Source: a virus
Virus record (IMG/VR): IMGVR_UViG_3300007344_000092
Coordinates: 1 to 36,099 of that record
Direction: 5' to 3' (one strand)
DNA: 36,099 nt
Position 1 is the first letter of the stretch. Each line of letters opens with the position of its first letter. Positions 17,604 through 35,820 of the stretch are shown piece by piece. Under the pieces are notes generated by a model. It was not told where the DNA came from, ran no database searches, and worked only from the letters and a program-made list of their open reading frames with translations. Position numbers and translations under genes: made by a program.

Positions 17604-17608
17604 ATTTG
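17601..17608 (+). promoter_or_regulatory. Bacteroidetes-type -7 box before the internal virion protein
   Basis: TAAATTTG followed by C matches TAnnTTTG exactly and overlaps the stop codon of the nozzle gene. Only six bases separate it from the ATG at 17615, so a transcript starting here would have almost no leader. The overlap with a stop codon means part of the match could be chance. Confidence 0.5.
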
Positions 17609-17614
17609 CAACAG

Positions 17615-18904
17615 ATGAACGGGAATCCATATACACCAGGCACACCAGAGTACCTTGCCTATCAAAGAGCCGATGTGGCTTCTGATTACGGCTATAACAT
17701 GTCACCAAGAATTGCAGGTCCGTATACCGACCCCGCTGATGTAATGGCTCCAGGCGTAATAGGCTCTCCTTCAATGTATCCCAACCCCGGAGGTATTGAC
17801 TTTGGTCGAGACCTTCCTGTGGTTCCAGGAGCACCTGTAAATGCTCCCGCTGGCGCTCAGTTTGGGTATGCTTCTTTAGGTGCACCGACGATGGGTGTTA
17901 CCCCTGGGTTAACAGGCGTGGCCGGGCCAACAAGGGCAGACATCCCTGGAGAGTACGAAACACTTCAGGGCATTCAGGAAATCCCCCTGGCAGAAGAGGC
18001 AGACATTCCTTTGGGCTTTGGCGAATCAGAGATAGGTGCAGCGGTAACAGAAACTCCGGCTGACGCCGCCGCCGCAGCGGCTTCAACAAAGTCGAATAGG
18101 GTTGGAGGTATGGACACTATCGCTGGCGCAGCAAGTGGTATTGGTCAGATTGCAGGCGGAATCATGAATATCACTCAGGGTGCTCGCGCTTTGAAGGATG
18201 TGGACATCGCAGGTGCAGAGGCGGGTGTTGACGCAGCCTACGCTACACGTCCAGGACTTAGTACTCCTGCAGAGTTTTATGACATGCAGAAGGAGGCGTA
18301 CGACCAGCGCTTGCTGGCTATGCGTACTGAAGACATAAACAGAGGACTAGCAACTAACGTAGCTGCAGCGCAGCAGTACGGCGCTCGGGGGCTGGGCACT
18401 AACCTGGCTGCAGCAGCTCAGGCACAGAGAGCTCAACAGCAGGAGGTTCTTCAGCAGCAACGTCTGCAAACTCAAGCACTCGGCTCCCTTGCCCAGGCCA
18501 GAGAGCGAGAGATTCAGAGAAGAGAGCAGCGTGCTACGTTCGACATTGGTATCGCCTACGACGAGCTCAAAGGTGAGCAAGCGAGAGAAGCATACGCAAG
18601 ACAGCAAATTAGTCAGGGTATTGTGGGGACTACTGCAGGCCTTGCTCGTACAGCCCTTACGTTTGGAGCAGAGCAGGGTGCCAAGGTTACGCCCGGTGAG
18701 TTTTCTCACGACAGCAACCCTATCGACATAGTACAAGATGGTGCTAAGATTGGAGAGATGACCGGAGGCGAGTACATCTTCAACCCAACGCAGGCTAAGA
18801 AGATGATGAAGGAGGCTAACGGCGGAAACACTGAGCTTCACAAGTTTGTACGCAAGACATTGAATAGATTCCATAAAGACGCAGCCAAGCATGAAGGTAA
18901 GTAA
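17615..18904 (+). CDS. Internal virion / cargo protein 1
   Basis: I choose the ATG at 17615 (429 aa, MNGNPYTPGT...); a TTG at 17606 is inside the promoter-like box. Residues 1-150 are Pro/Gly/Ala-rich and probably disordered. Residues about 165-190 (GMDTIAGAASGIGQIAGGIM) form a Gly/Ala hydrophobic segment that could enter a membrane. Residues 200-340 are Gln/Ala/Arg-rich coiled coil. The C-terminal segment, about 359-400, has PGEFSHDSNPIDIV and MTGGEYIFNPTQAKKMM; this 'TGGE...NP.Q' unit recurs in virion proteins of Bacteroidetes phages. An ejected internal protein, like the T7 gp14 class, fits best by position between nozzle and giant protein. No enzymatic residue is visible. Confidence 0.7.
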   Translation: MNGNPYTPGTPEYLAYQRADVASDYGYNMSPRIAGPYTDPADVMAPGVIGSPSMYPNPGGIDFGRDLPVVPGAPVNAPAGAQFGYASLGAPTMGVTPGLTGVAGPTRADIPGEYETLQGIQEIPLAEEADIPLGFGESEIGAAVTETPADAAAAAASTKSNRVGGMDTIAGAASGIGQIAGGIMNITQGARALKDVDIAGAEAGVDAAYATRPGLSTPAEFYDMQKEAYDQRLLAMRTEDINRGLATNVAAAQQYGARGLGTNLAAAAQAQRAQQQEVLQQQRLQTQALGSLAQAREREIQRREQRATFDIGIAYDELKGEQAREAYARQQISQGIVGTTAGLARTALTFGAEQGAKVTPGEFSHDSNPIDIVQDGAKIGEMTGGEYIFNPTQAKKMMKEANGGNTELHKFVRKTLNRFHKDAAKHEGK

Positions 18905-20696
18905 GAGAAACTTCCAGAGAGGAGGATACTACGAGAACAAGACAGATTTTGTTCTCGCACCACAAGACTATGCTGCTCTCGGTGCGGCGTATGATAGTAC
19001 CACGCAAAAGTATTTGGCCGCCCAGGACAAAGCCAAGAAGGATGCAAACACAAAAGCAAAGGAGGGAATCCAAGCTTTTGAGAATCGCACCAAGGTTATG
19101 GACAGGCATAATGGCCTACTTCAGGGAGCGTACGACGTTTGGTTTGATGCAAGGACAGCAGCAATTTCTGACCCCAATGCCGAGAACAAGCAGAAGGCTG
19201 AACAAGCCTACTCTCAATACTCTGTAATCAAGGAGAATGCAACAGCTATTACTGCGGAGTACCAAAAAGAAGTTAACGCCCTCAACAAGGGTGAACTGGA
19301 TAAGACGCTGATTGACAACCGGGCTGGAGCTTTGATTGACGCTCAAGAATTTAACAAGGAGATTCCATTCCAAGTACAGAACGGCAGGATTATGGTGCCT
19401 GGGGCCGACGGAGAACCAGTAGATTGGTCTCAGTCTACGTTCTACAACGAGAGCGTATTCGGGCAAAATGGAAGAAACTTCATCGCAACACGCAAGGCTC
19501 CAGGTACAGACTTTATGTTCGCACCTAAGTCAGACGAGTACTCGCAACAGTTGCAGGGCAGTGCCGACATCTTCCTTATGGAGGGTGAGAGAAAGAAGGG
19601 TATTGATGCTGTAGCTGTGGGGGCGCAGGTGGAGCAGCGCTTTAGAACTAGTATGCTGTCAGAGTCAGCTGCAGTGGTAGATGCTATATCACAGGAGTAC
19701 GGCGCCTTCAGCCAAAACGTGGAGAATCTGACTGTCGAGGGGATGCTCAAGGCGGACGCAGACTTCGGCGGAACAGAGCTCTACACAAGCAAAGACAACA
19801 AGTTTTTGACAGACTGGAGTCTTAGCTTTGTCCCAGGAGAGGACGAGAACTCTCCGGGTGAGTACAAGGTTAGCTTCATGAACCCTGACGAAGCGATTAG
19901 TTCTGGAGACCTGAACCCTAACACGGCTGCAGCAATCAAGAACAGACAGAATGCTTTGGGCTTCCACATCGAGAACCTTGCCAACCAGACGCTGTACAAG
20001 CTGAAGTCTCAGGTGCAGCCTGACCCTAAAGGCAGTAGCTTAAGCTTTGGTTCTGGATTTAAGAAGGGAGACATTCTTCCAGTGACTCAAGAGGTAACAC
20101 TATTTACAGAAGAAGGAGAAGTAACTGATGCCGAGGGCAATAAGGTCAAGGGTGAGCGCATGAACTTCCGAAATAAGCCTTTGAACTTGAGGTACAAGGA
20201 TGAGTCTGCTAAGATTACAAACATCCAGTACGACGAGCAGGGCAACCCATTTGCATTTGTGATTGAGTCTAATGCGATGAAAAACGATATTGCTTCTTCT
20301 TACACAGACCAAATTTCTGCACTAAACCGCCGCGCTGACAGAGTGTCTAGGCAGCTTTCAGGCACTACTTCTGTTGCTGAAAAAACCTCCCTTAAGTCTC
20401 AACTGTCAGAAATAGAATCAGACATTGACTCGTACACAAACGCCAGGACAAACATTAAGAAGTCCAAGGAAGGATTCATCATCGACAGGGACAACAAGTA
20501 CATGCGTGCAGACATTTTCTTGGGAGGGACACCGCAAGACGTACCTGGGTTTGAGGAAATCTTAACTTCTCTTATGAGTCAGGAACCTGCTTTGATGTCT
20601 GCTATTGACAGAGAGCTTGGAGGTTCACTGTTCCAAGGGTCATCCCCATCTCCCACTCCAGCCCCGAGCGCAGGTGTGGGGTCGAAGTACAACTAA
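18891..20696 (+). CDS. Internal virion / cargo protein 2
   Basis: A 601-aa soluble protein whose start overlaps the previous gene by 14 bases. The N-terminus is basic (MKVSKRNFQRGGYY). Residues about 25-130 are long Ala/Lys/Gln-rich helices, followed by mixed sequence, and the C-terminus is a Ser/Pro linker ending GVGSKYN. No catalytic motif, membrane helix or signal peptide is seen. Position and helical character fit an internal or ejected protein of the T7 gp15 type, assembled with its neighbours. The family is not recognised. Confidence 0.65.
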   Translation: MKVSKRNFQRGGYYENKTDFVLAPQDYAALGAAYDSTTQKYLAAQDKAKKDANTKAKEGIQAFENRTKVMDRHNGLLQGAYDVWFDARTAAISDPNAENKQKAEQAYSQYSVIKENATAITAEYQKEVNALNKGELDKTLIDNRAGALIDAQEFNKEIPFQVQNGRIMVPGADGEPVDWSQSTFYNESVFGQNGRNFIATRKAPGTDFMFAPKSDEYSQQLQGSADIFLMEGERKKGIDAVAVGAQVEQRFRTSMLSESAAVVDAISQEYGAFSQNVENLTVEGMLKADADFGGTELYTSKDNKFLTDWSLSFVPGEDENSPGEYKVSFMNPDEAISSGDLNPNTAAAIKNRQNALGFHIENLANQTLYKLKSQVQPDPKGSSLSFGSGFKKGDILPVTQEVTLFTEEGEVTDAEGNKVKGERMNFRNKPLNLRYKDESAKITNIQYDEQGNPFAFVIESNAMKNDIASSYTDQISALNRRADRVSRQLSGTTSVAEKTSLKSQLSEIESDIDSYTNARTNIKKSKEGFIIDRDNKYMRADIFLGGTPQDVPGFEEILTSLMSQEPALMSAIDRELGGSLFQGSSPSPTPAPSAGVGSKYN

Positions 20697-20713: not shown

Positions 20714-23700
20714 ATGAACGAACAGGCACTACAGGACGCTTATACTCTGTTCCAGCAGGAAGGGTACAACAATTCGTTTGACGAGTTTGTCAACTTGATT
20801 AACAGTAATGACCAAGCTCTTCAAGATGTCTACAACCTGTTCTCTCAGACAGGCTATAACAAAAGCTTTGATGAGTTCAACACCTTGATTGGTGTAAAAA
20901 AAAAAGACGATACTTCGGAGTTGGTCTCTCCTTTGGAAACGGTTTCTACGGAGTCTACCTCTCCTACGGTTCCACCACAGCAGGACGTTCCTGGAGATTC
21001 GGCTTCTCAAGTAACTGAGCCTGACTTCGCCGAGCTCGCTATGGGCTTGGAGGTGGGTGTTGAGACCCAACCATCTTACATGCAGGCACCCGGTATTAGA
21101 CCGGAGAAGGCACAGCAACAAGCAGTAGACCAACTTGCAGAGGAGCAGGGTTGGTCCAAGATGCCAACTGCCCCTCAGGATTTAGAAGAGTACTTCAGTA
21201 AGATTACGTCTCTACAGCAAGATGACCCGGACTCTATGTTTGAGGGAATCATTGCTGGAGGTCTCCTTGAGATGCCTGAGCTGGAGAAAGAAAAGCTTTC
21301 ACGTATTGCTGAAGGGGAGTCTTACTTCCTGGACCAGGAGAAGGCAAACGCGGCCCTGCAATACGACGAGGAGTACCGGGCAAAAGCTGCAGACGCGGCT
21401 AAGGGCCTAGTTCTCATTGAAGACGATGTCACAAATGTGTTCTTGAACGCTCAAGCGTTGAATACCGACGGGCTTGATGTCAACGCTTTGATGGACCTGA
21501 AGGAGCAATACACCCAAGAGCTCCCTAAAAAGAGAAGGGCCACTGTGGAGGCGATGGACCTCGAGGACTTTGTGCAGTACACAGCTGAGACCCGTATGCG
21601 CCGACAGTTTGCGGAAGCATTCATGGGCATGTCCGGCCTTACTGAAATGGACTTGCAGGTCAAAGTCGGCACAATGCGAGGCGAGATTGACGCAGCTCAA
21701 AGTTTTCAGGAAGACGGCAGCTGGGCGGCAAAAAAGTGGAGCAACTCCTGGAACACAAAAATGGGGGAGTGGGGTAGCGGAGGTAAGTTTGCTAGAGCCA
21801 AAGCCAGCGTAGAGCTTCTTGACGAAGACCTGAAGGATATTGACACAGTCCTCGGTATGTACGGGAGAGCTCCGTCTGAGGATGAGCTTATCCAGATTGG
21901 ACGTATGGTCTACAAGGGAGACACGTCTGACCTGGCTGGAGACCTGGGCGATGAAATCTCCACCAGGCAAATGCCACTGTCAGGGCCTAACTCTGATGCA
22001 GGACGTAAGGCATTGATTGAGCAGGGGATGAAAGCTTTTAAGCTCAACAGGGATTGGTGGGAGTCAAAGAAGAAGGAGCTGGAGGAGCTTCGAGAAAAGA
22101 AGCAGAAGGTTGGTGAGTACTATGCAAAAGACTTTGCAGAGATTCAATCCTTCAGGGATGTGACATCTAAGCTTATTGACCAGAAGGTTATGAGCGAAGA
22201 AGACCTTAATAAGGGAGCTATTGAAAGTTTGTTTGAGGGAGACTACAAGCTCTTCGGGTACAAGACTGTTGGTTTGATTTTCGACATTGCTCCGGACATG
22301 GCGAAAGGTATGGGAGCTGCTACTGTAGGTTCTCTTGTTGCCGGGCCACAAGGCGGAGCGTTAGCCATGAGTTTGGCTTTTGGCGTTCAGACGGCAGACC
22401 AAGCAGCGGGGGAATACGCATCACGGCCAGAGGTGACAGGAATTGAAGCGCTAGAGATGGCGGGGAAAGAAGGGTCTATTGAGGCTGGCATTTCTCTTCT
22501 ATTTGCTGGGCTTCAAACAAAGCAGGCAGCAATCGTTACAAAGGCTTCTGAGGAGGTTGCAGAGGCGTTTGTAAAGGGTGGGTCCAGAGAGTCTTTACGA
22601 GCGGCTAGAGAAGCCGTACAGGCGTTTGCGAAGACAGATGCTGGTATTAAAATTCTAGACGTTTTAGGTGAGGGCGCCGAGGAAGGATTGATTACAGGAC
22701 TGTCTCAGTATACCAGAGCTGTAAACGAGGTGGGCCAGGGTCGCATGACCGCAGAAGAAGCAAAGGCGGAGTACTACAACAGGTCAGAGATATTTGACAG
22801 CATTTACGCAGGTGTTCTTGGTGGTGGGGTGTCTTCTATTCCGTTTGTGCTTAGCAGAGGCGGCAGTGCTATCGGGTCTAAGTTCACCATGTTTGACCGA
22901 ATCAAAATCCAGACTGAAATGGAGGAGATTCGCACCAAGCTTGCAGACTCCAATACTACAGCTGAGGAGAAGAAAGAGTTGAATGCTAGGTTCACCAAGC
23001 TTCATGACGACGCCAACAGTCTCTCAAGAAAGGATATTGAGTTCTATCAGAACATGACGGAGGAGGACCAGAACCGACTGGTCGAACTCAACCAAAGAAT
23101 CAGCAATGTTCGCAGGGCTTCAAGACAAGCGGTCACCAGCCTTTCTGCGCTAAGGAATAGAATCCGTCGTGCTGAGTCTCCAGAGCAAAGAAGAGTCATG
23201 GAGGCTGAGCTCAATCAGCTTACGTCTGCAGAAGCCCAGAGAAGGACCGCCGCTGAGGCTGACATCAGGTCTCTCATGCAAGAGAAGCTCGAGATTGAAA
23301 ACAAGTATGGCTCTGCTGATTCTGGATTTGACGTCGACGTAGAGAGAGAGCAAAGAAATCGTGCTGAGGTTGAGCGCATGGTGAATGAAGTGCTCAACGT
23401 GGACAAAGGATTTGAGGGGTTATTTTCAGCTTTGGGCGTCAAGGGTATCAAGAAGGGGAGCATCAAGCTTACAGCAGAAAACGTAGAGGTTGTTCTTCAG
23501 CGCCTACTCTCTGGGGAGATTAAGGGCACACGATTTGCTACTGCAGAACAGATTAGAGACGGTATTGTAAGCGCGTTTGGAATGGCTAAAGCTGTCATTG
23601 CGGATAACCCTGACGCAGAGGTGGTGCTTGTCGACAGCCTCACGCAGTGGAAGAAGGAGACACGCGATGCCAAGAATCCAGATGGATACAGTGTCAGCTT

Positions 23701-26700
23701 GGGTATCCATATTCCTACAGATGGAGGTAAGATTGTATTGTACGCCCCTGCGTTAAAGTCTAACACTGCTTACCACGAGGGATTCCACCAGATGGTGTTC
23801 CGGATGATGCAGAAGAGCGGCGTTGACAGAGGGGCTGCCATGATTAGACTTGCCTCTGTAATTAGAAAGGGCATGAGTCCAGAGCTGTTGGAGAGATACG
23901 GGAGGTTTGTTGGAATGTACAAGGACCCCAACGACGCATTTAATGACGCGCTGTTGGCCGAGGAGTTCTTGGCTGAGGTGTTTGGCGACCTTGCCGACGG
24001 CGCTATCGACATCAAGTTCCAGAAGGGTATCGTCAGTTCGTTTTTGCAGTTCTTGAACCAGGCACTCAAGGAGAGAAACATCAGAGTTACTGGTACGCCC
24101 CTGACACAGGACATCGCTGTTGCGATTAGGGATGCGGCAAATGCTTTTAGGGATGGTGAAGGCGGGGCACAAGAGAACATTCTCCTAGCATTTGATGCAG
24201 CCGACAACATTGTGTTGACCCCAGGGCTTGAAGCTCTTCGGGCCAAGCTGGAGGTACGACGCCACAGGAGGGCAATAGCGCAAGCATTGAGCGAGCTGAC
24301 ATCCGACGACAGTCAGGATAGCAGGGCGCATGCTCAGAGAATCGAGGAGCCAAGTGTGCTTGGAGACTGGGCGAATGAGTTCCTGCGTTATGACAGCAAA
24401 GGCAACGTGAGGCTGTTCCATGTGGGGCCAGAAAATCTTGAGGGCAACTTCATTGACCCACGCCGCTTTGGACAGCAGCCGTACACCAAGGACAAGAGAG
24501 GGGACAAGGTTTCTATGTTCTACGTGAGGCCAGAAGACCGTGAGCGCATGGTGCTGGGTAGAACGTACGACGTAACCATTCCGCCTCAGATGCTTTACGA
24601 CCTGTTCAAGGACCCACTTAACCTGTACGATACTGCGAAGGCTGAGTTCCAGAAGAAGCATAGCATTGCGTTCGATGGCAATAGGCAGGCAGAGTGGATT
24701 GGATACGAAGCGAGAAAGCTCGGCTTCGACGGTATCGTTGTAAAGTGGAGAAACACAGCTCGCGTAGACATGTGGGCTCCTGTGACTCCAGATGAGTTCG
24801 GTGGGTACACACCTCAGGGTAGCCGAATCGGTGAGGCAGACATCAGGGTTATCAGTGAGAAGGACAAGTACGGCATGTGGCGCAACCTGTCAGGCCGCTA
24901 CAAGGCCAATACAGATGCTCACGTTCGTATGACTACGGGTGCTGAAAACCAAGTCACAGAATTGTCAGAAGAGGAAGTGAGCAAGCTCTTTGATGAGGGT
25001 GCTAAGTTCGTAACCGCTAACGCGCTGGGTGTCAATGCAATAGGTTACGTAACCGCTGACGGATACATCGGAGGTCTCAGTAAGAATCCAGAGGGTGTTG
25101 GTAGAGGTGTTCAAGCGGCTCTTCTTGGTAAGCGTGTAGAGCTTGGGGGTACACACCTTGAGTGCTTTGCAACCTACCTCGAAGGCAACAACATTAAGGA
25201 AGGATTTGTGCCTGTCGCTAGGATTCCATTTAACGTGGAGCTTGCTCCTAAGGGATGGGACGCAGAGACGTCTTTGCTGAAGGATAAGCCGGACCTAGTG
25301 TTCATGGCTCACGACCCCGCAGCCGCGAAGAATGCCAAGCCTGGTGATGGCGCACGCCTTGACGACTATATGGAGGCGCTTAACATGGCCATCGACAGAG
25401 TGTCTAGGGCAGAGGAGCAGCAAGACGTTGACGAACAGTTCATCACAAAGAAGAAGCCGGGAGAGAGGGTGAAGGCTCAGGCGATGGAGCGGTCATGGCT
25501 TTCATCAAACACGCCTAAGCTTGTAAACGCTGGAATCCTCATGCACGGAACCAGTGCAGACTTCACTGAGTTCTCTATGCGCAAAGCAACTGAGTCAACG
25601 GGCATGTACGGCAAGGGCGTGTACCTGACCCACAACGTCGATAAGGCGTTGTCTTACGGGGGTAACTTTGTCTTTGTTGACGGTGAGAGATTAGACCTTG
25701 CCAACCTTCAAAGCAAGGAGGTAGCCGACAAATTCTTGAACTCTGTTCTTGCTAAGGAAACAGAAGGAGGCCTCGGTCTTGCTGCTATTGCTGCTGGTAA
25801 AGCAAAGCGTCCCGTAGGCCTTGTGGGCAAGTACGATTTGTTTAGCCTTGAATACCAAGTGCTCTTGATGTACTCTGGCTTGGACCTGGAGCGCGTTATA
25901 GGTACTGATGAATTGCGTCCTAGATATGACTTTGACAGACTTCAGGACCCAGTAGAATTTGTAGAGTCAATCTACGAAGAGATGTACAAGCTGGCTGAGG
26001 GAGTAAACATCCCGATGAGCTCCGCTGAACAACTGTCTTCATTTGGTCTAAACGGTATAAGGTCTCACATGACTGGCAGGTCAATGGGTATGGTACCTGG
26101 ACTCGGAGGCTTCGTTAGGAATGTATTTAGAACATACAACAACAGGCTTTCTGAGCGAAGAATAGACCCCAAGGACTTTGAGAATGACGAGTTGAAGTAC
26201 GATGTTGCAATAGCCCTAATCGAGGGCGCATACATGACTCAGGTTATCCGGGCAGGATATGACGGTGTGTACGTATCTCGTGAGTTTGACTATGGAGGCA
26301 GCATGGAAAGACTCGACGACAACAGGTTTGAAAAGTCAGGTGTGGATGGCGGTCTCGCTCAAGAAGCAATCATATTCAACAACACACTGCTAAACCAAAG
26401 CATCGTTGAGTTTGAAGATGTAATCCCTCTTGCTGACTCTCGTATTTCTCAAGGAAGAACGCGCACGGAGAAAGGTGGAGAGCTCGGCACTGACCTCTTG
26501 CTCAACGACAGAATGAAAGCCTTGGGCGCTGTCAAGAGACAAGGGCCAGCGCTCAATGAATACATGGACAACTACGACTCAGAGGTCGCAGACTTTGTAG
26601 ATTCAGATAGCATCCCGGTCAAGGTTCGTTCAGAGCAGGACCTGTCTCGCATGGAGTCAATCATGCTTGATGTCCTTGAGTTCTTCTACGACAAGTTCTA

Positions 26701-29482
26701 CAAGGCACTGCGAATCCAGAGAGAGATTCAAAAGGCTCGTGGTGGTCGCCGTGTCATGCGTGAGCAAGACTACGAGATGGCCCTGGCACTTATTGATGGT
26801 AAGGCGTCAGGCAGGCTGCAAAGCGTAGACAAGTTTATGGAGCAGCTTGCTGGAGTCATGAACAAGTACGGCATTCTGCACGACCAGCTTGGTCAGTTCC
26901 TGTACGCCATGCACGCCCCCAATCGTAACGCTGTCATTGCGGAGCGAATGGCCAATTCACTCAACGCTATCAGAAGCGAAATTGAACAGCTGCAGGAGCA
27001 AGTCAACAGAGAGGAGGACGTTGAGGAGAAGGGTAAGCTTCAGAAGAAACTCAAAGACAAAAGAGACAAGGCTCAGGAGATTGAAGCTCGCATGGAGGGG
27101 GGCAACTTCTCAGGTATGACTGACCAAGAGGCCCTCGAGTTGGTGGAAGCATTGGACTCAGAAGGCATGCGTGAAGCATACCAGATGGTCATGGACTTCC
27201 AGAAAGAGACACGACAGCTCATCGTAGAGTACGGACTGGAGACCCAGCAGACTATCGACATGCTCGAGGCCGTGTACCCAAGCTATGTACCACTCAGTGG
27301 ATTTGCTATGGACGAGGACGCCAACGAAGTAGGTTATGCGAACATGCACCAGGCACGTGTCTTCAGGGGTATCCGCCGAGCTGAGGGTAGAACGTCAGAG
27401 GCACGCAACCCACTCGACCACATCTTTGAAAGAAGATACCAGACTGTCCTTGCCGGGGAGAAAAACGTGGCAAACACCCGCCTGCTCAACCTGCTTTCTG
27501 CAAACCCTGACCCATCTATGTACCAAATCTTCGGACCAAAGGACAAGCTGCCTGGTGTCGTAGGAAGAAAGGGTCGCATGACTGAGTCCGAAGCTCGTAG
27601 AGATGAACGTTTTGTTGAGGTTGTTGTGAATGGTGAGACTTTCTTCATTCGCTTCGAGAGTGAAGCTGTGGCCAGAGCAGTCAACAAGCACAATATCACA
27701 AGGCTTGGTGACGGTGTCCACAAGTACGTTCAGAAAACGTTCCAGATGATTCGCAGCTTTGGAAGGTTTATGTCTATGTCGTTCACCAGCTGGTCGCCAG
27801 ACTTCGTTGGACAAAACTTTATCCGTGACTTGCAGTTCGGTTTGGGCTCACTGCTGGCAGAGCAGGAGATTGCTGGAGGTCAGGCGTATGGGGAGAAGAT
27901 TGTTAAGGACGCAGCGAAGGGTGTGTATCCAGCGCTGAAGTTCCTGGGCAAGACAATCGTCGGTGGAGTTGAGGACACTTCAGACCCACTGTACAGGTAC
28001 TACAAGGAGTTTTCAGAGAGAGGTGCAACAACTGACTGGCCGTACCAAAAGAACGCAGACCAGTTCAGGAGCGACATCGAGACTCTGACCAATGCACAGA
28101 ATCCAAACCTCAAGACCAAAGCCACGACCCTACTCAAGGCTACAGGTCGGTTGGTTGATGGCGTCAACAAGTCTGTTGAAAACGCTGTAAGATTCGCGGC
28201 GTTCGTGGCCGCACGTAAGGCTGGTGTGGATGCAGAAGCAGCGGCATACTTGGCCAAAGAACTCACCATCAACTTCAACAGAAGTGGCAGTGGAGGCTCA
28301 GTTGTCAATGCAATCTACCTGTTCTTCAACGCAGGTGTGCAGGGTACAGCCAAGTTTGTTCGCACCATGGGTACATTGAAGAAGGTGCCTGATGGTCGTG
28401 GAGGATACTACAAGACGTTGAACTCCGCGCAGATGGTTGCTGCTGGCATGTCAGGGTTTGCATTCCTGATGGCCTTCGTAAACGAGGCGATGTCTGGTGA
28501 GGACGAGGACGGAAGAAGCCACTACGAAAAGATTCCGGACTACGTCAAGGAGCGCAACATGATTTTCATGAACCCGTTCGACGAGGAAGGGAAAGACCGC
28601 TTCATAATCCCACTCCCTTACGGTTACAACATCTTCCACAACGCAGGTACTGTTGGGGCTGAGGTTGCCATGGGTATCCGCAGCGCGGGTAGCGCGGGTA
28701 TGTTCTTGACCGGAGGCATGGTGAACTCGTTCATCCCGGTGTCATTCGGTCAATCATCTAGCGTAGCCAAGAAGACTGTCAAGGCATTCACACCAACGTT
28801 CCTGAGACCTTGGATGGAGTGGGCCATCAACGAAAGCTACTTCGGTACACCTGTGTACAACGAGAACTTCCCTGGACAGAACCTGCCTGCATCGTCGCTC
28901 GCATCTCGTTCACCTGAGTGGTTGAGAGAGACAGCCAAGTTCCTCAACGAGGCTACAGGCGGTAACGAGTTCGAGGCGGGGTGGCTTGATGCCGACCCAG
29001 ACGTGGCGGCCTACATTTTCCAGTACTACACTGGTGGAACAGGTAGATTCTTGGAGAAGGTATCTAAGTCTGTAGACAACTCCATCAGTCTGTTGGCTGG
29101 TGAGTCTGACATCAGAGCTGGAGAAATTGCATCTGACCTGCCACTGTTTGGAAAGCTTTACGGCACACCTAATGCAAGGCAGGACGTTGCTGACTACTAC
29201 AAGTTCAGAACAAACGTTAGAACCAAAGCCAAAGCGGCCAAGGAGCTCGGTCTCGATGATGAGAAGTACAGGAACTCTGTTGTCCTAAACGAAATCGGAG
29301 TCAACGCCGACCGTCAGCTGAAGGAGAACAGAAGGCTGATGCGCGCTGTGCAGAACAACGACAAGCTAGACCCTCAGGTCAAGGCTAGAGACATCGAGAC
29401 CCTCGAAAGAGAGCGCATGCAAATTATCTATAACTTTAACCGCGAATATCTCAAGTACTATGAAAGAAGAAAAACAGATTAA
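20714..29482 (+). CDS. Giant polyvalent virion protein with zincin, two ART-like modules and LPD38-like region
   Basis: A 2922-aa protein, probably packaged and ejected with the genome. Order: two helical repeats (residues 4-60); A/T/P-rich linker; long helical region with a Gly/Ala-rich hydrophobic segment (about 515-565); coiled coil (about 726-870); zinc-peptidase motif H1021-E-G-F-H1025 with a downstream acidic EEFLAEVFGDL (E1083-E1088); an ART-like start at RLFHVG (H1236); a GNAT-like segment (about 1430-1535; GGTHLECFATYLEGNN...GFVPVARIPF); a second ART with H1611-G-T, G-K-G-V-Y1637 and QEAIIFN (E1884), a full H-Y-E triad; a second coiled coil (about 2080-2130); and an LPD38-like region (about 2330-2560) with FTSWSPDFVGQNFIRD and FFNAGVQGT. 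This matches the 'polyvalent protein' architecture described for phages and conjugative elements. Host targets are unknown. Confidence 0.85.
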   Translation: MNEQALQDAYTLFQQEGYNNSFDEFVNLINSNDQALQDVYNLFSQTGYNKSFDEFNTLIGVKKKDDTSELVSPLETVSTESTSPTVPPQQDVPGDSASQVTEPDFAELAMGLEVGVETQPSYMQAPGIRPEKAQQQAVDQLAEEQGWSKMPTAPQDLEEYFSKITSLQQDDPDSMFEGIIAGGLLEMPELEKEKLSRIAEGESYFLDQEKANAALQYDEEYRAKAADAAKGLVLIEDDVTNVFLNAQALNTDGLDVNALMDLKEQYTQELPKKRRATVEAMDLEDFVQYTAETRMRRQFAEAFMGMSGLTEMDLQVKVGTMRGEIDAAQSFQEDGSWAAKKWSNSWNTKMGEWGSGGKFARAKASVELLDEDLKDIDTVLGMYGRAPSEDELIQIGRMVYKGDTSDLAGDLGDEISTRQMPLSGPNSDAGRKALIEQGMKAFKLNRDWWESKKKELEELREKKQKVGEYYAKDFAEIQSFRDVTSKLIDQKVMSEEDLNKGAIESLFEGDYKLFGYKTVGLIFDIAPDMAKGMGAATVGSLVAGPQGGALAMSLAFGVQTADQAAGEYASRPEVTGIEALEMAGKEGSIEAGISLLFAGLQTKQAAIVTKASEEVAEAFVKGGSRESLRAAREAVQAFAKTDAGIKILDVLGEGAEEGLITGLSQYTRAVNEVGQGRMTAEEAKAEYYNRSEIFDSIYAGVLGGGVSSIPFVLSRGGSAIGSKFTMFDRIKIQTEMEEIRTKLADSNTTAEEKKELNARFTKLHDDANSLSRKDIEFYQNMTEEDQNRLVELNQRISNVRRASRQAVTSLSALRNRIRRAESPEQRRVMEAELNQLTSAEAQRRTAAEADIRSLMQEKLEIENKYGSADSGFDVDVEREQRNRAEVERMVNEVLNVDKGFEGLFSALGVKGIKKGSIKLTAENVEVVLQRLLSGEIKGTRFATAEQIRDGIVSAFGMAKAVIADNPDAEVVLVDSLTQWKKETRDAKNPDGYSVSLGIHIPTDGGKIVLYAPALKSNTAYHEGFHQMVFRMMQKSGVDRGAAMIRLASVIRKGMSPELLERYGRFVGMYKDPNDAFNDALLAEEFLAEVFGDLADGAIDIKFQKGIVSSFLQFLNQALKERNIRVTGTPLTQDIAVAIRDAANAFRDGEGGAQENILLAFDAADNIVLTPGLEALRAKLEVRRHRRAIAQALSELTSDDSQDSRAHAQRIEEPSVLGDWANEFLRYDSKGNVRLFHVGPENLEGNFIDPRRFGQQPYTKDKRGDKVSMFYVRPEDRERMVLGRTYDVTIPPQMLYDLFKDPLNLYDTAKAEFQKKHSIAFDGNRQAEWIGYEARKLGFDGIVVKWRNTARVDMWAPVTPDEFGGYTPQGSRIGEADIRVISEKDKYGMWRNLSGRYKANTDAHVRMTTGAENQVTELSEEEVSKLFDEGAKFVTANALGVNAIGYVTADGYIGGLSKNPEGVGRGVQAALLGKRVELGGTHLECFATYLEGNNIKEGFVPVARIPFNVELAPKGWDAETSLLKDKPDLVFMAHDPAAAKNAKPGDGARLDDYMEALNMAIDRVSRAEEQQDVDEQFITKKKPGERVKAQAMERSWLSSNTPKLVNAGILMHGTSADFTEFSMRKATESTGMYGKGVYLTHNVDKALSYGGNFVFVDGERLDLANLQSKEVADKFLNSVLAKETEGGLGLAAIAAGKAKRPVGLVGKYDLFSLEYQVLLMYSGLDLERVIGTDELRPRYDFDRLQDPVEFVESIYEEMYKLAEGVNIPMSSAEQLSSFGLNGIRSHMTGRSMGMVPGLGGFVRNVFRTYNNRLSERRIDPKDFENDELKYDVAIALIEGAYMTQVIRAGYDGVYVSREFDYGGSMERLDDNRFEKSGVDGGLAQEAIIFNNTLLNQSIVEFEDVIPLADSRISQGRTRTEKGGELGTDLLLNDRMKALGAVKRQGPALNEYMDNYDSEVADFVDSDSIPVKVRSEQDLSRMESIMLDVLEFFYDKFYKALRIQREIQKARGGRRVMREQDYEMALALIDGKASGRLQSVDKFMEQLAGVMNKYGILHDQLGQFLYAMHAPNRNAVIAERMANSLNAIRSEIEQLQEQVNREEDVEEKGKLQKKLKDKRDKAQEIEARMEGGNFSGMTDQEALELVEALDSEGMREAYQMVMDFQKETRQLIVEYGLETQQTIDMLEAVYPSYVPLSGFAMDEDANEVGYANMHQARVFRGIRRAEGRTSEARNPLDHIFERRYQTVLAGEKNVANTRLLNLLSANPDPSMYQIFGPKDKLPGVVGRKGRMTESEARRDERFVEVVVNGETFFIRFESEAVARAVNKHNITRLGDGVHKYVQKTFQMIRSFGRFMSMSFTSWSPDFVGQNFIRDLQFGLGSLLAEQEIAGGQAYGEKIVKDAAKGVYPALKFLGKTIVGGVEDTSDPLYRYYKEFSERGATTDWPYQKNADQFRSDIETLTNAQNPNLKTKATTLLKATGRLVDGVNKSVENAVRFAAFVAARKAGVDAEAAAYLAKELTINFNRSGSGGSVVNAIYLFFNAGVQGTAKFVRTMGTLKKVPDGRGGYYKTLNSAQMVAAGMSGFAFLMAFVNEAMSGEDEDGRSHYEKIPDYVKERNMIFMNPFDEEGKDRFIIPLPYGYNIFHNAGTVGAEVAMGIRSAGSAGMFLTGGMVNSFIPVSFGQSSSVAKKTVKAFTPTFLRPWMEWAINESYFGTPVYNENFPGQNLPASSLASRSPEWLRETAKFLNEATGGNEFEAGWLDADPDVAAYIFQYYTGGTGRFLEKVSKSVDNSISLLAGESDIRAGEIASDLPLFGKLYGTPNARQDVADYYKFRTNVRTKAKAAKELGLDDEKYRNSVVLNEIGVNADRQLKENRRLMRAVQNNDKLDPQVKARDIETLERERMQIIYNFNREYLKYYERRKTD
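20723..20893 (+). repeat. Two tandem 30-residue helical repeats at the giant protein's N-terminus
   Basis: Residues 4-33 and 34-60 of the giant protein are a direct protein repeat: QALQDAYTLFQQEGYNNSFD... and QALQDVYNLFSQTGYNKSFD..., identical at 19 of 26 aligned positions. The conserved frame is QALQD.Y.LF.Q.GYN.SFDEF..LI. Similar short 'Y.LF...GY.GSFDEF' units occur at the ends of other large marine phage virion proteins, where a packaging or targeting tag is a reasonable but unproven role. The repeats end directly before the A10 run. Confidence 0.85.
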
Positions 29483-29897
29483 GGACACCGCCCTTGGGGG
29501 GTGGATGAAAGACAAGGCTCCTGATGTCTTGAAGGTTGTTGGTCACATGCTGCCTGACAGAGGTATGCTGGGCATTGTTAAGGGCTTGCTGCATAAGGAC
29601 CCTCAAGTCAAAAACGATGAGGCTGATGCGATGGTAGACGCAGAGGTTCACTTCCAAAACAATGTGACTGAAAGGTGGAAGGCGGACATGGGCAGCGATG
29701 TAAAACTTGCAAAGCTTATTAGACCTGTAACCCTGATTGCTCTTATGTCAATGTTCATGGTTACCATGGTCATGGATAGCCTTGATAACCTGCCATTTAA
29801 CGTAAAAGATTCGTACGTATCTTTGCTCGAAATCCTTATGCTGACTGCATTTGGTGCATACTTCGCAGGTAGAACAATCGAGAAATCTAAAAAATGA
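29460..29897 (+). CDS. Holin (GTA_holin_3TM-like)
   Basis: A 145-aa protein overlapping the giant gene's end by 23 bases. A helical N-terminus is followed by the signature NVTERWKADMGSDVKLAKLIRP (about 69-89), just before hydrophobic segments at about 88-106 and 120-138, and a basic C-terminus (RTIEKSKK). The 'RW.aDm.sd..LakliRP' block before the first membrane helix is characteristic of the holin family known from gene transfer agents (GTA_holin_3TM). It would form inner-membrane pores at the end of infection. No endolysin is recognised beside it. The stop overlaps the next ATG (ATGA). Confidence 0.75.
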   Translation: MKEEKQIKDTALGGWMKDKAPDVLKVVGHMLPDRGMLGIVKGLLHKDPQVKNDEADAMVDAEVHFQNNVTERWKADMGSDVKLAKLIRPVTLIALMSMFMVTMVMDSLDNLPFNVKDSYVSLLEILMLTAFGAYFAGRTIEKSKK

Positions 29898-31057: not shown

Positions 31058-31333
31058 ATGGCAAAGGTTGGAGAGAACACGGAGGTAACACTTGACCTCA
31101 AGACGTTGGGAATGGTGGCTGCCGGGGTAGCAAGCATGGTTGCCATGTGGTTCTCGCTCCAAGCCGACATTGCCGTCGCAAAAGAACTACCCGCCCCGGT
31201 TGCTCCAGAGATTACTCGCATGGAGTTTGACATGAAAGACCAGTTGGTCCGTCAAACAATCATGACGACACAAGAGGATGTTACCGAGATGAAGGAAGAC
31301 ATCAAGATGATTAAGGAAAAGCTCTATGAATAA
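31058..31333 (+). CDS. Single-TM plus coiled-coil protein (possible inner-membrane spanin)
   Basis: A 91-aa protein. An N-terminal cytoplasmic stretch is followed by one hydrophobic segment (about 17-35, GMVAAGVASMVAMWFSL), then a Pro-rich linker (ELPAPVAP) and a charged, heptad-like C-terminal half (about 52-91) rich in Glu/Lys/Met. This topology (N-in, TM, periplasmic coiled coil) is that of i-spanins and of some phage holin-like proteins. It lies between the barrel and the thioredoxin-fold gene, two bases after the barrel stop. I cannot assign a family from sequence. Confidence 0.7.
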   Translation: MAKVGENTEVTLDLKTLGMVAAGVASMVAMWFSLQADIAVAKELPAPVAPEITRMEFDMKDQLVRQTIMTTQEDVTEMKEDIKMIKEKLYE

Positions 31334-31697
31334 GCTGCTCTTTTTACTGCTCTTGATTCCCACGACGGCGTTCTCTCAGAGCTTTATCAAACTCAAAGAG
31401 CTCGATGCCAAGAAGTCTAAAGGCATCACCATCGTTGAGTTCTGGGCTTCCTTCAATCAATCAAATGAGGTTGCATTTATGAAGGACCTCGATGATTGCA
31501 GAGCTTATAGGTTAGACATCTCTACCAACCCTGCAGCGTCATCTCAGTATTCAGTAATGAGTGTCCCTACTGTTGTTGTATTTGACAACGGTGCAGAAGC
31601 ACTAAGATACACACCAAACATCTTGATGCAGCTCGTGGCTACGCAGAGAGAAGTTCAATCAGATATTGACAATATTATTCTTAAAAAGTTTCAATGA
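31326..31697 (+). CDS. Exported thioredoxin-fold protein lacking both catalytic cysteines
   Basis: A 123-aa protein with a signal peptide (LLFLLLLIPTTAFSQ). The rest is a thioredoxin fold: VEFWASFNQSN (residues 37-47) takes the place of the thioredoxin VDFWAEWCGPC, and YRLDISTNPAASSQYSVMSV (61-80) then PTVVVFDNG matches the beta-3/helix/cis-Pro part of thioredoxin (P81 = the cis-Pro). Both catalytic cysteines are asparagine (N44, N47) and there is only one Cys (C58), so a redox role is unlikely. It may bind or fold peptides in the periplasm, or decoy a host thioredoxin partner. It overlaps the upstream gene by eight bases and the next by ATGA. Confidence 0.85.
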   Translation: MNKLLFLLLLIPTTAFSQSFIKLKELDAKKSKGITIVEFWASFNQSNEVAFMKDLDDCRAYRLDISTNPAASSQYSVMSVPTVVVFDNGAEALRYTPNILMQLVATQREVQSDIDNIILKKFQ

Positions 31698-34032: not shown

Positions 34033-35820
34033 TCAAAGCTCCAACTGTTTACCCACTTTTAATTCACATAGAGGTGTTAATACCTTGGGGTGAGGATGCA
34101 CCATGCTGAATCCAGACATCTGCTGATTGAACTCAAATCTCAATGGGAAGTCGTGCGGTGTAGGGGTGCCACCAGTCTCGGTCATACGAACTTTACGTAC
34201 GTGCATCTCGATTGTCCTTCTTTCAGAGTGCTCTTGGTGCTGAACCTTTCTGTGCAATGTCACAAAACAGTCAGCTCTATTAACGAACTTACCTCCACCC
34301 TCTGTGTCCTCAGCGTACGGAGCCATTGATAAACCATCAGGACCCTTGCGGCGTTGAGCTTCAGTAAAGGCGTGAGCGTTCACCCACACAGCCATGTTCT
34401 GTTTATTGCTGAATGTCAGGAACTCACTGGCTGCCTCGTAATGGTACTCATGAGTGTTGATGTTTCTGTTGTGACTAAGGTCAATACGCAGTGCGTTGTA
34501 CGGGTCAACAAGAAGTCCGTCAATACCATCCATGTTCTTGAGCTTCTCAGCAAACACCATGATGTCATGAACGCTGTAGTTCTTGTGGTTGTCCACGAAA
34601 ACAAAGTGGTCATTGACCCACTGGTATGCTGTCTTCAGCTCCTTGTGGTTCATGCGCTGAAGCGGCATGTCCATTGCGAACTGCATAATCTTTACCCGGT
34701 TAGTCCAGGTGGGGTTCTCAGCACTGTACACCATCCACTTCCATCCATGATTTAGAGCGGAGATGGTCATCAGCCACAGTGTGAATGTTGTTTTACCCAC
34801 ATTACTGTGACCGTTTATCATGAGGAACTCTCGCTTAAACCTAAAGTGCTCGTCAAACTTTTCATGCCCACTGCCTAAGCCTAGCTGAATCTGACCGCCA
34901 ATAAACTTTTGAATCCACTCATAGTCACGCTCATCGGAAGAGATAAAAGACATGTCGCCATCCATCACGCGCATCTCATGACGCACCTTCTCCATCTCTC
35001 TTACTGTCTCACCCAATGGTGCGAGCTTGCCTTGCTCAATACCATCAACGATAGTCTTTCTTGCGTGGTCGAGGTCGAGGGGATTCCTTGCCTCAATCTC
35101 ACGGACCAAGACACGGAAAGCCTCCTCTTCCTCTACTTTGCCTGCAGCGATATACCCTCCAATGAGGCGGGATGCACGCAATAGGGTCGCATGCTTTTCC
35201 CCTTCGGGGGCGTACCGAATCATTTGAGATGCAATCTGTAGCTTCTCGTAGTCAGTACGCCCCGTCGCCTCGGTAGGGCTCGGCTCTGCATGCTTATCAT
35301 TTAACATACCACCAAATCGGGTATGTGTTTTCTTGATGCAGATATTCTCATCATAAGACTCGAAGCAGGCACGGGATTCGTTAATCCCTGAGGGGTCTAC
35401 CTCGAGCTCGTATTTTCTTTCAAAGTAATCGCAGAGAGAACGGAAGTGGTCACGATGTCTTTCTGGATTGCTAATTTCTACCAGTGCCTTGACACCATCC
35501 CCACTGGGTGATGTCCAGCACGCTGCCACATGGTCGTCGAATGCCAGCCTAGTCTTGGCGTCATCAACATCTCCAACGTGGTCGAAGTCAAGAACGATAA
35601 GACCGCTATGCTTCTGAAGCGAGCCATCCTTACGTTCACGAAACCGCCCGCTCCAAAGGACAACGGGCAGGTTCTTCTTAAGTTCTTTGTCTCCGTTACG
35701 TACTAGGTCAATCCTCTGCCTCTGTTTGCCAGATTGAATGCGTTGCAGTGCTGTTTCCGCTGTAATGTACGTGGGTTTCGTCGAGTATAGGTCCTCGAAT
35801 ATCGTTACTACTTGTGTCAT
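34033..35820 (-). CDS. Fused primase-helicase (VirE_N/BT4734-like plus DnaB-like ATPase)
   Basis: A 595-aa replication protein. Residues 1-165 match the BT4734/VirE_N-type domain: LKKNLPVVLWSGRFRER, HSGLIVLDFDHV (DFD 78-80), TSPSGDGVKALVEI (103-116) and VDPSG...SRACFESYD (141-157). These resemble archaeo-eukaryotic primase motifs (hDhD, then sGxG), with Lys where a His is usual. Residues about 195-265 look like a primase C-terminal helical domain. The second half is a RecA-like helicase: Walker A GHSNVGKTT (337-345), Walker B GLLVDPYN (435-442), and VNAHAF (480-485). It is analogous to T7 gp4 but with an unrelated primase half and no zinc-binding domain. The first 37 codons overlap the Nmad1 gene in another frame. 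Confidence 0.85.
   Translation of the reverse strand: MTQVVTIFEDLYSTKPTYITAETALQRIQSGKQRQRIDLVRNGDKELKKNLPVVLWSGRFRERKDGSLQKHSGLIVLDFDHVGDVDDAKTRLAFDDHVAACWTSPSGDGVKALVEISNPERHRDHFRSLCDYFERKYELEVDPSGINESRACFESYDENICIKKTHTRFGGMLNDKHAEPSPTEATGRTDYEKLQIASQMIRYAPEGEKHATLLRASRLIGGYIAAGKVEEEEAFRVLVREIEARNPLDLDHARKTIVDGIEQGKLAPLGETVREMEKVRHEMRVMDGDMSFISSDERDYEWIQKFIGGQIQLGLGSGHEKFDEHFRFKREFLMINGHSNVGKTTFTLWLMTISALNHGWKWMVYSAENPTWTNRVKIMQFAMDMPLQRMNHKELKTAYQWVNDHFVFVDNHKNYSVHDIMVFAEKLKNMDGIDGLLVDPYNALRIDLSHNRNINTHEYHYEAASEFLTFSNKQNMAVWVNAHAFTEAQRRKGPDGLSMAPYAEDTEGGGKFVNRADCFVTLHRKVQHQEHSERRTIEMHVRKVRMTETGGTPTPHDFPLRFEFNQQMSGFSMVHPHPKVLTPLCELKVGKQLEL

What the first reader, a model, noticed from the sequence alone, without database searches (positions are those of the whole stretch)
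23600..26460. Zincin plus two ART-like modules and a GNAT-like segment in one ejected-type protein
In the giant protein I can see HEGFH (1021-1025) with a downstream Glu, an ART-like RLFHVG (H1236), a GNAT-like segment (about 1430-1535) and a second ART with H1611, Y1637 and E1884 in the right order and context (HGTS..F; GKGVY; QEAIIFN). From established knowledge of phage polyvalent proteins, such domains are effectors delivered to the host. Four potential effector activities in one 2922-aa chain, between cargo-type genes and the holin, would make it a multi-weapon injection protein. The triad of the second ART has about 245 residues between Tyr and Glu, which is a large insertion and worth checking.
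Basis: partly seen in the sequence, partly recalled or inferred. Interest (0 to 1): 0.8.

Follow-up and report, generated by a model that had tools for sequence, protein, structure and literature searches.

The report
Multi-enzyme giant phage ejection-type protein
This is a 2,922-residue phage protein whose middle third carries a protease-like domain, two unrelated ADP-ribosyltransferase-type domains and an acetyltransferase-type domain; it is a new, well-stocked example of a known class (polyvalent proteins) that phages are thought to inject into their hosts.

Summary
The finding is real. Residues 1930-2922 are a phage core with LPD38 (E 3.6e-33), shared with Stx, Vibrio and 'DarB-like' Burkholderia phages. 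The middle third is a cassette of mobile modules.
(1) Zincin-type peptidase, about 925-1150: HEGFH plus E1083/E1084/E1088 conserved; fold match weak.
(2) ART1, 1210-1360: well modelled (pLDDT about 88-93). Its best structural matches are ARTs, led by the anti-CRISPR AcrIF11 (Foldseek prob 0.97; Z 6.7). H1236 and Y1270 are invariant in 25 homologues.
(3) GNAT fold, 1420-1556: 49 of 50 listed structural matches carry GNAT-type titles. The acetyl-CoA P-loop consensus is missing.
(4) ART2, 1600-1905: weak ART-PolyVal match, below cut-off. H1611, Y1637, E1884 and also D1850 are invariant in 10 sequences. The Tyr-Glu insert is real (208-259 residues) and fast-evolving, but ART2's model is too poor to test the triad's geometry.
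Iyer et al. 2017 described this class: zincin, ART and GNAT domains in virion-delivered polyvalent proteins. Packaging, delivery and catalysis are unproven here. New member of a known kind.

The parts
20714..29482 (+). Giant polyvalent protein, 2922 aa, ATG start, stop included
23486..24163 (+). Zincin-like metallopeptidase domain, residues about 925-1150
   Evidence: HEGFH 1021-1025 and EEFLAE (E1083, E1084, E1088) conserved; AF2 pLDDT roughly 50-85 over 920-1105; aligned by VIA to the first domain of anthrax lethal factor, Z 3.7-4.4
23774..23788 (+). HEGFH motif, residues 1021-1025
24341..24793 (+). ART1, ADP-ribosyltransferase-fold domain, residues 1210-1360; H1236, Y1270, acids D1339 and D1352
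   Evidence: AF2 pLDDT about 88-93 over most of it; AcrIF11 6kyf prob 0.97, Z 6.7, followed by ParT, RES, MbcT and other ARTs; H and Y invariant in 25 rows
24971..25381 (+). GNAT-fold domain, residues 1420-1556
   Evidence: AF2 pLDDT up to 97; VIA Z 8.6, 49 of 50 listed rows titled as GNAT-type acetyltransferases; homologues in phages and plasmids
25511..26428 (+). ART2, predicted ADP-ribosyltransferase, residues 1600-1905; H1611, Y1637, D1850, E1884
   Evidence: Pfam ART-PolyVal 25.6 bits for the segment alone, below the 31.2 cut-off, weak match in all 6 relatives scanned; four residues invariant in 10 rows
25709..26203 (+). Variable insertion inside ART2, residues 1666-1830, predicted helical at low confidence
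   Evidence: 15% mean identity to relatives against 46-51% in the first and last catalytic segments
26501..29479 (+). Conserved C-terminal core, residues 1930-2922
   Evidence: tblastn E down to about 1e-96 to Stx, Vibrio, Ruegeria, Burkholderia, Methanosarcina and Bacteroides phages; alignment A1; phrog_14770 and phrog_616
28520..29110 (+). LPD38 (PF18857), residues 2603-2799
   Evidence: E 3.6e-33, 115.7 bits, cut-off 27
17606..18904 (+). Upstream 432-aa late protein (P0003); C-terminal segment conserved beside giant ORFs in distant phages
18891..20696 (+). Upstream 601-aa late protein (P0004), conserved next to the giant gene in close relatives
29460..29897 (+). Holin gene directly downstream
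   Evidence: phrog_3427, 2.2e-21

Best explanation
The gene encodes a polyvalent internal-virion (ejection-type) protein of a podovirus-like phage. The conserved C-terminal core with LPD38 most likely serves packaging and ejection. The N-terminal two thirds carry exchangeable effector modules: a zincin peptidase, an AcrIF11-like-fold ADP-ribosyltransferase (ART1), a compact GNAT and a second ART of PolyVal/PARP-like motif type (ART2) with a fast-evolving insertion that could be its target-recognition lobe. At infection the protein would enter the host with the DNA; the zincin would cut the chain or release modules, and the ARTs would modify host or defence proteins before phage genes are expressed. 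Shown here: gene, module boundaries, homology, folds of ART1 and GNAT, mobility of modules, synteny. Inferred: packaging, delivery, cleavage, catalysis, targets.
For: LPD38 E 3.6e-33 and a C-terminal core shared with phages of distant hosts. ART1 fold. GNAT fold. Zincin ligands conserved. ART2 weak Pfam match, invariant H, Y, D, E. Modules recur singly and in new orders in other phage proteins, for example ART1-GNAT-zincin in L123 and zincin-GNAT in L151/L159; ART1 is undetected in L095, and a block of roughly 720-850 aa between GNAT and ART2 is present in relatives but not here. Synteny tail gene - P0003 - P0004 - giant - holin is kept in relatives. The GNAT also forms the C-terminus of a phage minor capsid protein encoded between portal and scaffold. 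Iyer et al. 2017 (PMC5512222) describe the class and its precedents P1 DarB, P1 DdrB and N4 virion RNA polymerase.
Against: No proteomics or activity for this phage or its close relatives. ART2 model unusable. Zincin fold match is weak (Z at most 4.4). The GNAT P-loop is degenerate. D1339 of ART1 is replaced in 5 of 25 homologues.
Confidence: 0.68

Rival explanations
1. The chain is mainly a structural/DNA-ejection protein, and the enzyme-like modules are decayed or purely structural leftovers.
For: GNAT P-loop consensus absent and not conserved in the family. The core, not the modules, is the most widely shared part. One module family is carried in a minor capsid protein.
Against: Zincin HExxH+E, ART1 H/Y and ART2 H/Y/D/E are invariant while surrounding sequence diverges to 15-50%. 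ART1 is one of the better conserved parts of the N-terminal region (up to 71% against about 47% for residues 1-1572).
Confidence: 0.15
2. The zincin is not an effector but an assembly-stage autoprotease that trims the protein before or after packaging, so only some modules reach the host. (Compatible with the best explanation on the other modules.)
For: Precedent: P1 DdrB is cut before packaging, and Iyer et al. favour processing as one role of these zincins (PMC5512222). Here the zincin lies upstream of the other modules.
Against: N4 virion RNA polymerase is packaged uncut (same source). No cleavage site could be identified; a KAQ repeat at linkers was not significant. In L123 the zincin follows ART1 and GNAT.
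Confidence: 0.4
3. ART2 is not an ART; the HGTS/GKGVY/QEAIIFN match is coincidental.
For: Pfam score below the gathering cut-off; low-confidence model; no profile-profile match to ART1.
Against: ART-PolyVal found in all 6 relatives scanned and as the only match of that family in this record; four residues invariant in 10 sequences with a variable insert between them; a scan of 2020 ORFs for the pattern gave 12 hits, 8 of them this family.
Confidence: 0.1

Closest known systems
Phage polyvalent proteins (Iyer et al. 2017, PMC5512222)
   Same: Giant multidomain protein in the late module; zincin, ART and GNAT domains in one chain; LPD38 domain; GNAT next to an ART, as reported there
   Different: Two ART modules with no detectable similarity to each other, one of them without any Pfam or NCBIfam match; no delivery evidence for this phage
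Giant proteins of Stx phages (phrog_616, about 2793 aa) and DarB-like proteins of Burkholderia phages
   Same: C-terminal core of about 900 residues, 24-29% identity; HExxH motifs further N-terminal in both
   Different: No detectable ART1, GNAT or ART2 similarity in the proteins compared by BLAST
Flavobacterium elemo phage 3667-aa 'structural protein'
   Same: ART1-type domain (1e-7) and zincin region (1e-4) in the same order; top BFVD structure match
   Different: No LPD38-core match; basis of the 'structural' annotation not known to me
AcrIF11 (anti-CRISPR ADP-ribosyltransferase, 6kyf)
   Same: ART fold; His and Tyr as in AcrIF11Pae2 H20/Y46 (PMC12421852)
   Different: 12% identity over 122 aligned residues, rmsd 3.9 A; AcrIF11 is a small free protein; no evidence that ART1 acts on CRISPR
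ART-PolyVal (PF18760)
   Same: ART2 shows the HGT, GxGxY and GxDG elements seen in members that pass the cut-off
   Different: Below the curated cut-off; about 165-residue insertion; E1884 present in addition to D1850

Membership tests
Polyvalent proteins (Iyer et al. 2017) | Several unrelated conflict-type enzymatic domains in one polypeptide | tested here: met
   Zincin, ART1, GNAT by homology or fold; ART2 by motif
Polyvalent proteins (Iyer et al. 2017) | Encoded in phage late/packaging gene neighbourhood | tested here: met
   Terminase, portal and virion structural genes upstream, holin downstream
Polyvalent proteins (Iyer et al. 2017) | Large-polyvalent-protein-associated (LPD) domain | tested here: met
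   LPD38, 115.7 bits against cut-off 27
Polyvalent proteins (Iyer et al. 2017) | Delivered to the host with the DNA | not testable with these tools
   Needs virion and infection proteomics
Zincin-like metallopeptidase | HExxH plus a downstream Glu ligand on a following helix | tested here: met
   Conserved in the rows that cover it; helices predicted over HExxH and EEFLAE
Zincin-like metallopeptidase | Zincin fold | tested here: inconclusive
   Match to lethal factor first domain, Z 4.4 at most
ADP-ribosyltransferase superfamily (ART1) | ART fold | tested here: met
   Foldseek prob 0.97 to AcrIF11; VIA Z 6.7; ART1-range rows are ARTs or ART-fold enzymes
ADP-ribosyltransferase superfamily (ART1) | H-Y-acid catalytic set | tested here: met
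   H1236 and Y1270 invariant; D1339 in window, replaced in 5 of 25, 4 of which carry Glu at the 1352 position
ART-PolyVal PF18760 (ART2) | Score over the curated gathering cut-off | tested here: not met
   25.6 bits for the segment, cut-off 31.2
ART-PolyVal PF18760 (ART2) | H in strand 1, Y in strand 2, D in strand 5 | tested here: inconclusive
   H1611, Y1637, D1850 invariant in 10 rows, but strands at these places are predicted only at low confidence
ART-PolyVal PF18760 (ART2) | ART fold with the triad in one pocket | tested here: inconclusive
   ART2 pLDDT mostly 25-57
GNAT superfamily | GNAT fold | tested here: met
   VIA Z 8.6, 49 of 50 listed rows titled as GNAT-type acetyltransferases
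GNAT superfamily | Q/R-x-x-G-x-G/A acetyl-CoA loop | tested here: not met
   Window EGVGRG (1460-1465); loop not conserved in relatives
AcrIF11 family | Recognisable sequence homology and anti-CRISPR activity | tested here: inconclusive
   No PDB sequence match for the ART1 profile and no NCBIfam match; activity not testable here

The most novel reading that the evidence does not exclude
ART1 founds an uncurated, virion-delivered ART family that works like AcrIF11 but arrives with the DNA, disabling a host defence complex before any phage gene is expressed, while ART2 uses its fast-evolving 165-residue insertion as an exchangeable target-recognition lobe; both are supplied as modules of one ejected chain.
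Probability: 0.1. Interest if true: 0.75.

Novelty: new member of a known kind. Interest (0 to 1): 0.4.

Why it matters
If the modules are active, one packaged chain would bring up to four chemistries into the host at the moment of infection, and the shuffled module orders found here give a direct way to ask which module acts against which host function. The ART1 and GNAT families have no Pfam or NCBIfam model that detects them and recur in dozens of phage proteins, so naming them would annotate many 'hypothetical' virion-type giants. The general concept is already published.

Tried and rejected
(1) AF2 for ART2: only 10 rows of alignment, pLDDT mostly 25-57; no distances could be used. (2) First mixed alignment A6 pulled ART1 fragments onto the GNAT, and A10 misplaced ART2 rows; replaced by A9 and A11 after checking register. 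(3) Repeated KAQ linkers as protease sites: not significant after allowing for the number of tri-peptides tested. (4) Profile comparison ART1 versus ART2: no relation. (5) Sequence-profile search of the PDB with ART1, ART2 and zincin profiles: no meaningful hits. (6) Direct search of IMG/VR with the window segment alone: none; relatives came only through alignments. (8) The elemo 'structural protein' label: the one paper I checked (PMC7077304) does not name elemo phages or report virion proteomics of them in its main text.
Full report
What was checked. The window is a 36,099-base virus record with a podovirus-like late module: terminase large subunit, portal, virion structural proteins (including one with a weak SU10-adaptor match) and an 1896-aa virion structural protein, followed by two late proteins, the giant gene and a holin. 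The giant ORF is 20714-29482, 2922 aa, uninterrupted.

C-terminal core. Residues 2603-2799 are LPD38 (E 3.6e-33). The last ~990 residues match giant proteins of Stx, Vibrio, Ruegeria, Burkholderia ('DarB-like antirestriction'), Methanosarcina and Bacteroides phages and phrog_14770, phrog_616 and others. An alignment of this core fetched 80 viral contigs; five (L012-L016) are close (57-58% identity), and later scans added L092, L093, L095 and L099. The two relatives with complete genes in that first set align at 47% over residues 1-1572.

Zincin. HEGFH at 1021-1025 and E1083/E1084/E1088 (EEFLAE) are conserved in relatives down to about 25% identity. The AF2 model of 880-1419 gives the region moderate confidence. 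VIA aligns it to the first domain of anthrax lethal factor at Z 3.7-4.4. That is a weak match, but it agrees with the unification of polyvalent zincins with lethal factor by Iyer et al. 2017 (PMC5512222).

ART1. Residues 1210-1360 are mostly modelled at pLDDT 86-93. Best Foldseek match is AcrIF11, 6kyf (prob 0.97, TM 0.53 by target). VIA gives AcrIF11 and VPA0770 Z 6.7, then ParT, MbcT, a RES toxin, a second AcrIF11, diphtheria toxin, exotoxin A and tankyrases. Z values of this size can be common, but ART-fold enzymes fill the rows of this range. H1236 and Y1270 are invariant in 25 homologues; D1339 is kept or Glu in 20, and four of the five others carry Glu at position 1352, where the window has Asp. 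H and Y match H20/Y46 of AcrIF11Pae2, whose double mutant H20A/Y46A is inactive (PMC12421852). No Pfam or NCBIfam model detects ART1.

GNAT. Residues 1420-1556 are modelled at pLDDT up to 97; 49 of the 50 listed VIA rows are titled as GNAT-type acetyltransferases, with RimI and Nat-type N-terminal acetyltransferases prominent (best Z 8.6). The single exception is a pre-ribosome chain whose title does not name it. Sequence relatives are in Microbacterium phage minor capsid proteins and Rhodococcus plasmids and, through L163, Streptomyces phage 'acetyltransferases'. The acetyl-CoA loop is EGVGRG here and is not conserved in the family, so transfer activity is uncertain.

ART2. Residues 1600-1905 give ART-PolyVal 25.6 bits, below the 31.2 cut-off; all six members scanned match weakly, and the window and five relatives match in the genome search. 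H1611, Y1637, D1850 and E1884 are invariant in ten sequences; Tyr-Glu spacing is 208-259; the insert 1666-1830 shows 15% identity against 46-51% in the first and last catalytic segments. By eye, five ART-PolyVal matches from other phages have the GxDG Asp in four of five and a Glu at the following strand in two of five (the automatic alignment did not register this part). A second phage ART-like sequence (L225/L042) also shows a gap of roughly 230 residues between the GxGxY motif and the next catalytic-type strand (my count). The AF2 model cannot test the geometry.

Modularity. In other phage proteins the modules occur alone, paired, or in a different order (L123: ART1, GNAT, zincin); in L095 no ART1 is detected and zincin and GNAT are close together. 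Close relatives have a block of roughly 720-850 aa between GNAT and ART2, with a weak second GNAT match and DUF7178 (over its cut-off in L095 only), which the window does not have. Synteny around the gene is conserved.

Mechanism. Most likely the protein is packaged and ejected with the DNA; its core serves the virion, and its modules act in the host, with the zincin processing the chain. This follows precedents named in PMC5512222 (P1 DarB in the head; DdrB processed; N4 RNA polymerase packaged uncut; T4 Alt injected). None of these steps was shown for this phage. A role for the ART2 insert in target choice is an inference by analogy with the variable helical region of AcrIF11 (PMC12421852).

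Verdict. Observation confirmed; interpretation partly supported. New member of a known kind, with two domain families that no current Pfam or NCBIfam model detects and one unresolved active site.

Noticed in passing
L014 about 1545-2350 and L016 about 1535-2385 (residues of the giant proteins): Close relatives carry a block of roughly 720-850 aa between GNAT and ART2 with a weak second GNAT (Acetyltransf_7) match and DUF7178 (over cut-off only in L095); the window does not have it.
   Followed up: partly
window 17606-18904: The C-terminal 60-70 residues of P0003 are conserved in genes upstream of giant ORFs in otherwise distant phages (L026, L142, L146), suggesting a shared internal-virion protein set.
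   Followed up: partly
L002 2816-4390: A Microbacterium phage minor capsid protein (between portal and scaffold) carries the same GNAT domain at its C-terminus, which hints at virion-borne use of this domain.
   Followed up: no
L123 6334-15591: The same three modules occur in permuted order: ART1, GNAT, zincin.
   Followed up: no
window giant residues 1206 and 1587; linkers in L014/L016: [VL]KAQ or similar recurs at module boundaries; enrichment of KAQ was not significant, but the placement before and after ART2 in relatives is noticeable.
   Followed up: partly
window 31326-31697: Small thioredoxin-like ORF near the lysis genes (PF00085, 22.2 bits, just below cut-off).
   Followed up: no
window 34033-35820 (-): Primase-helicase with BT4734-like N-terminal domain and DnaB C-terminal domain, perhaps pointing to a Bacteroidota host.
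   Followed up: no
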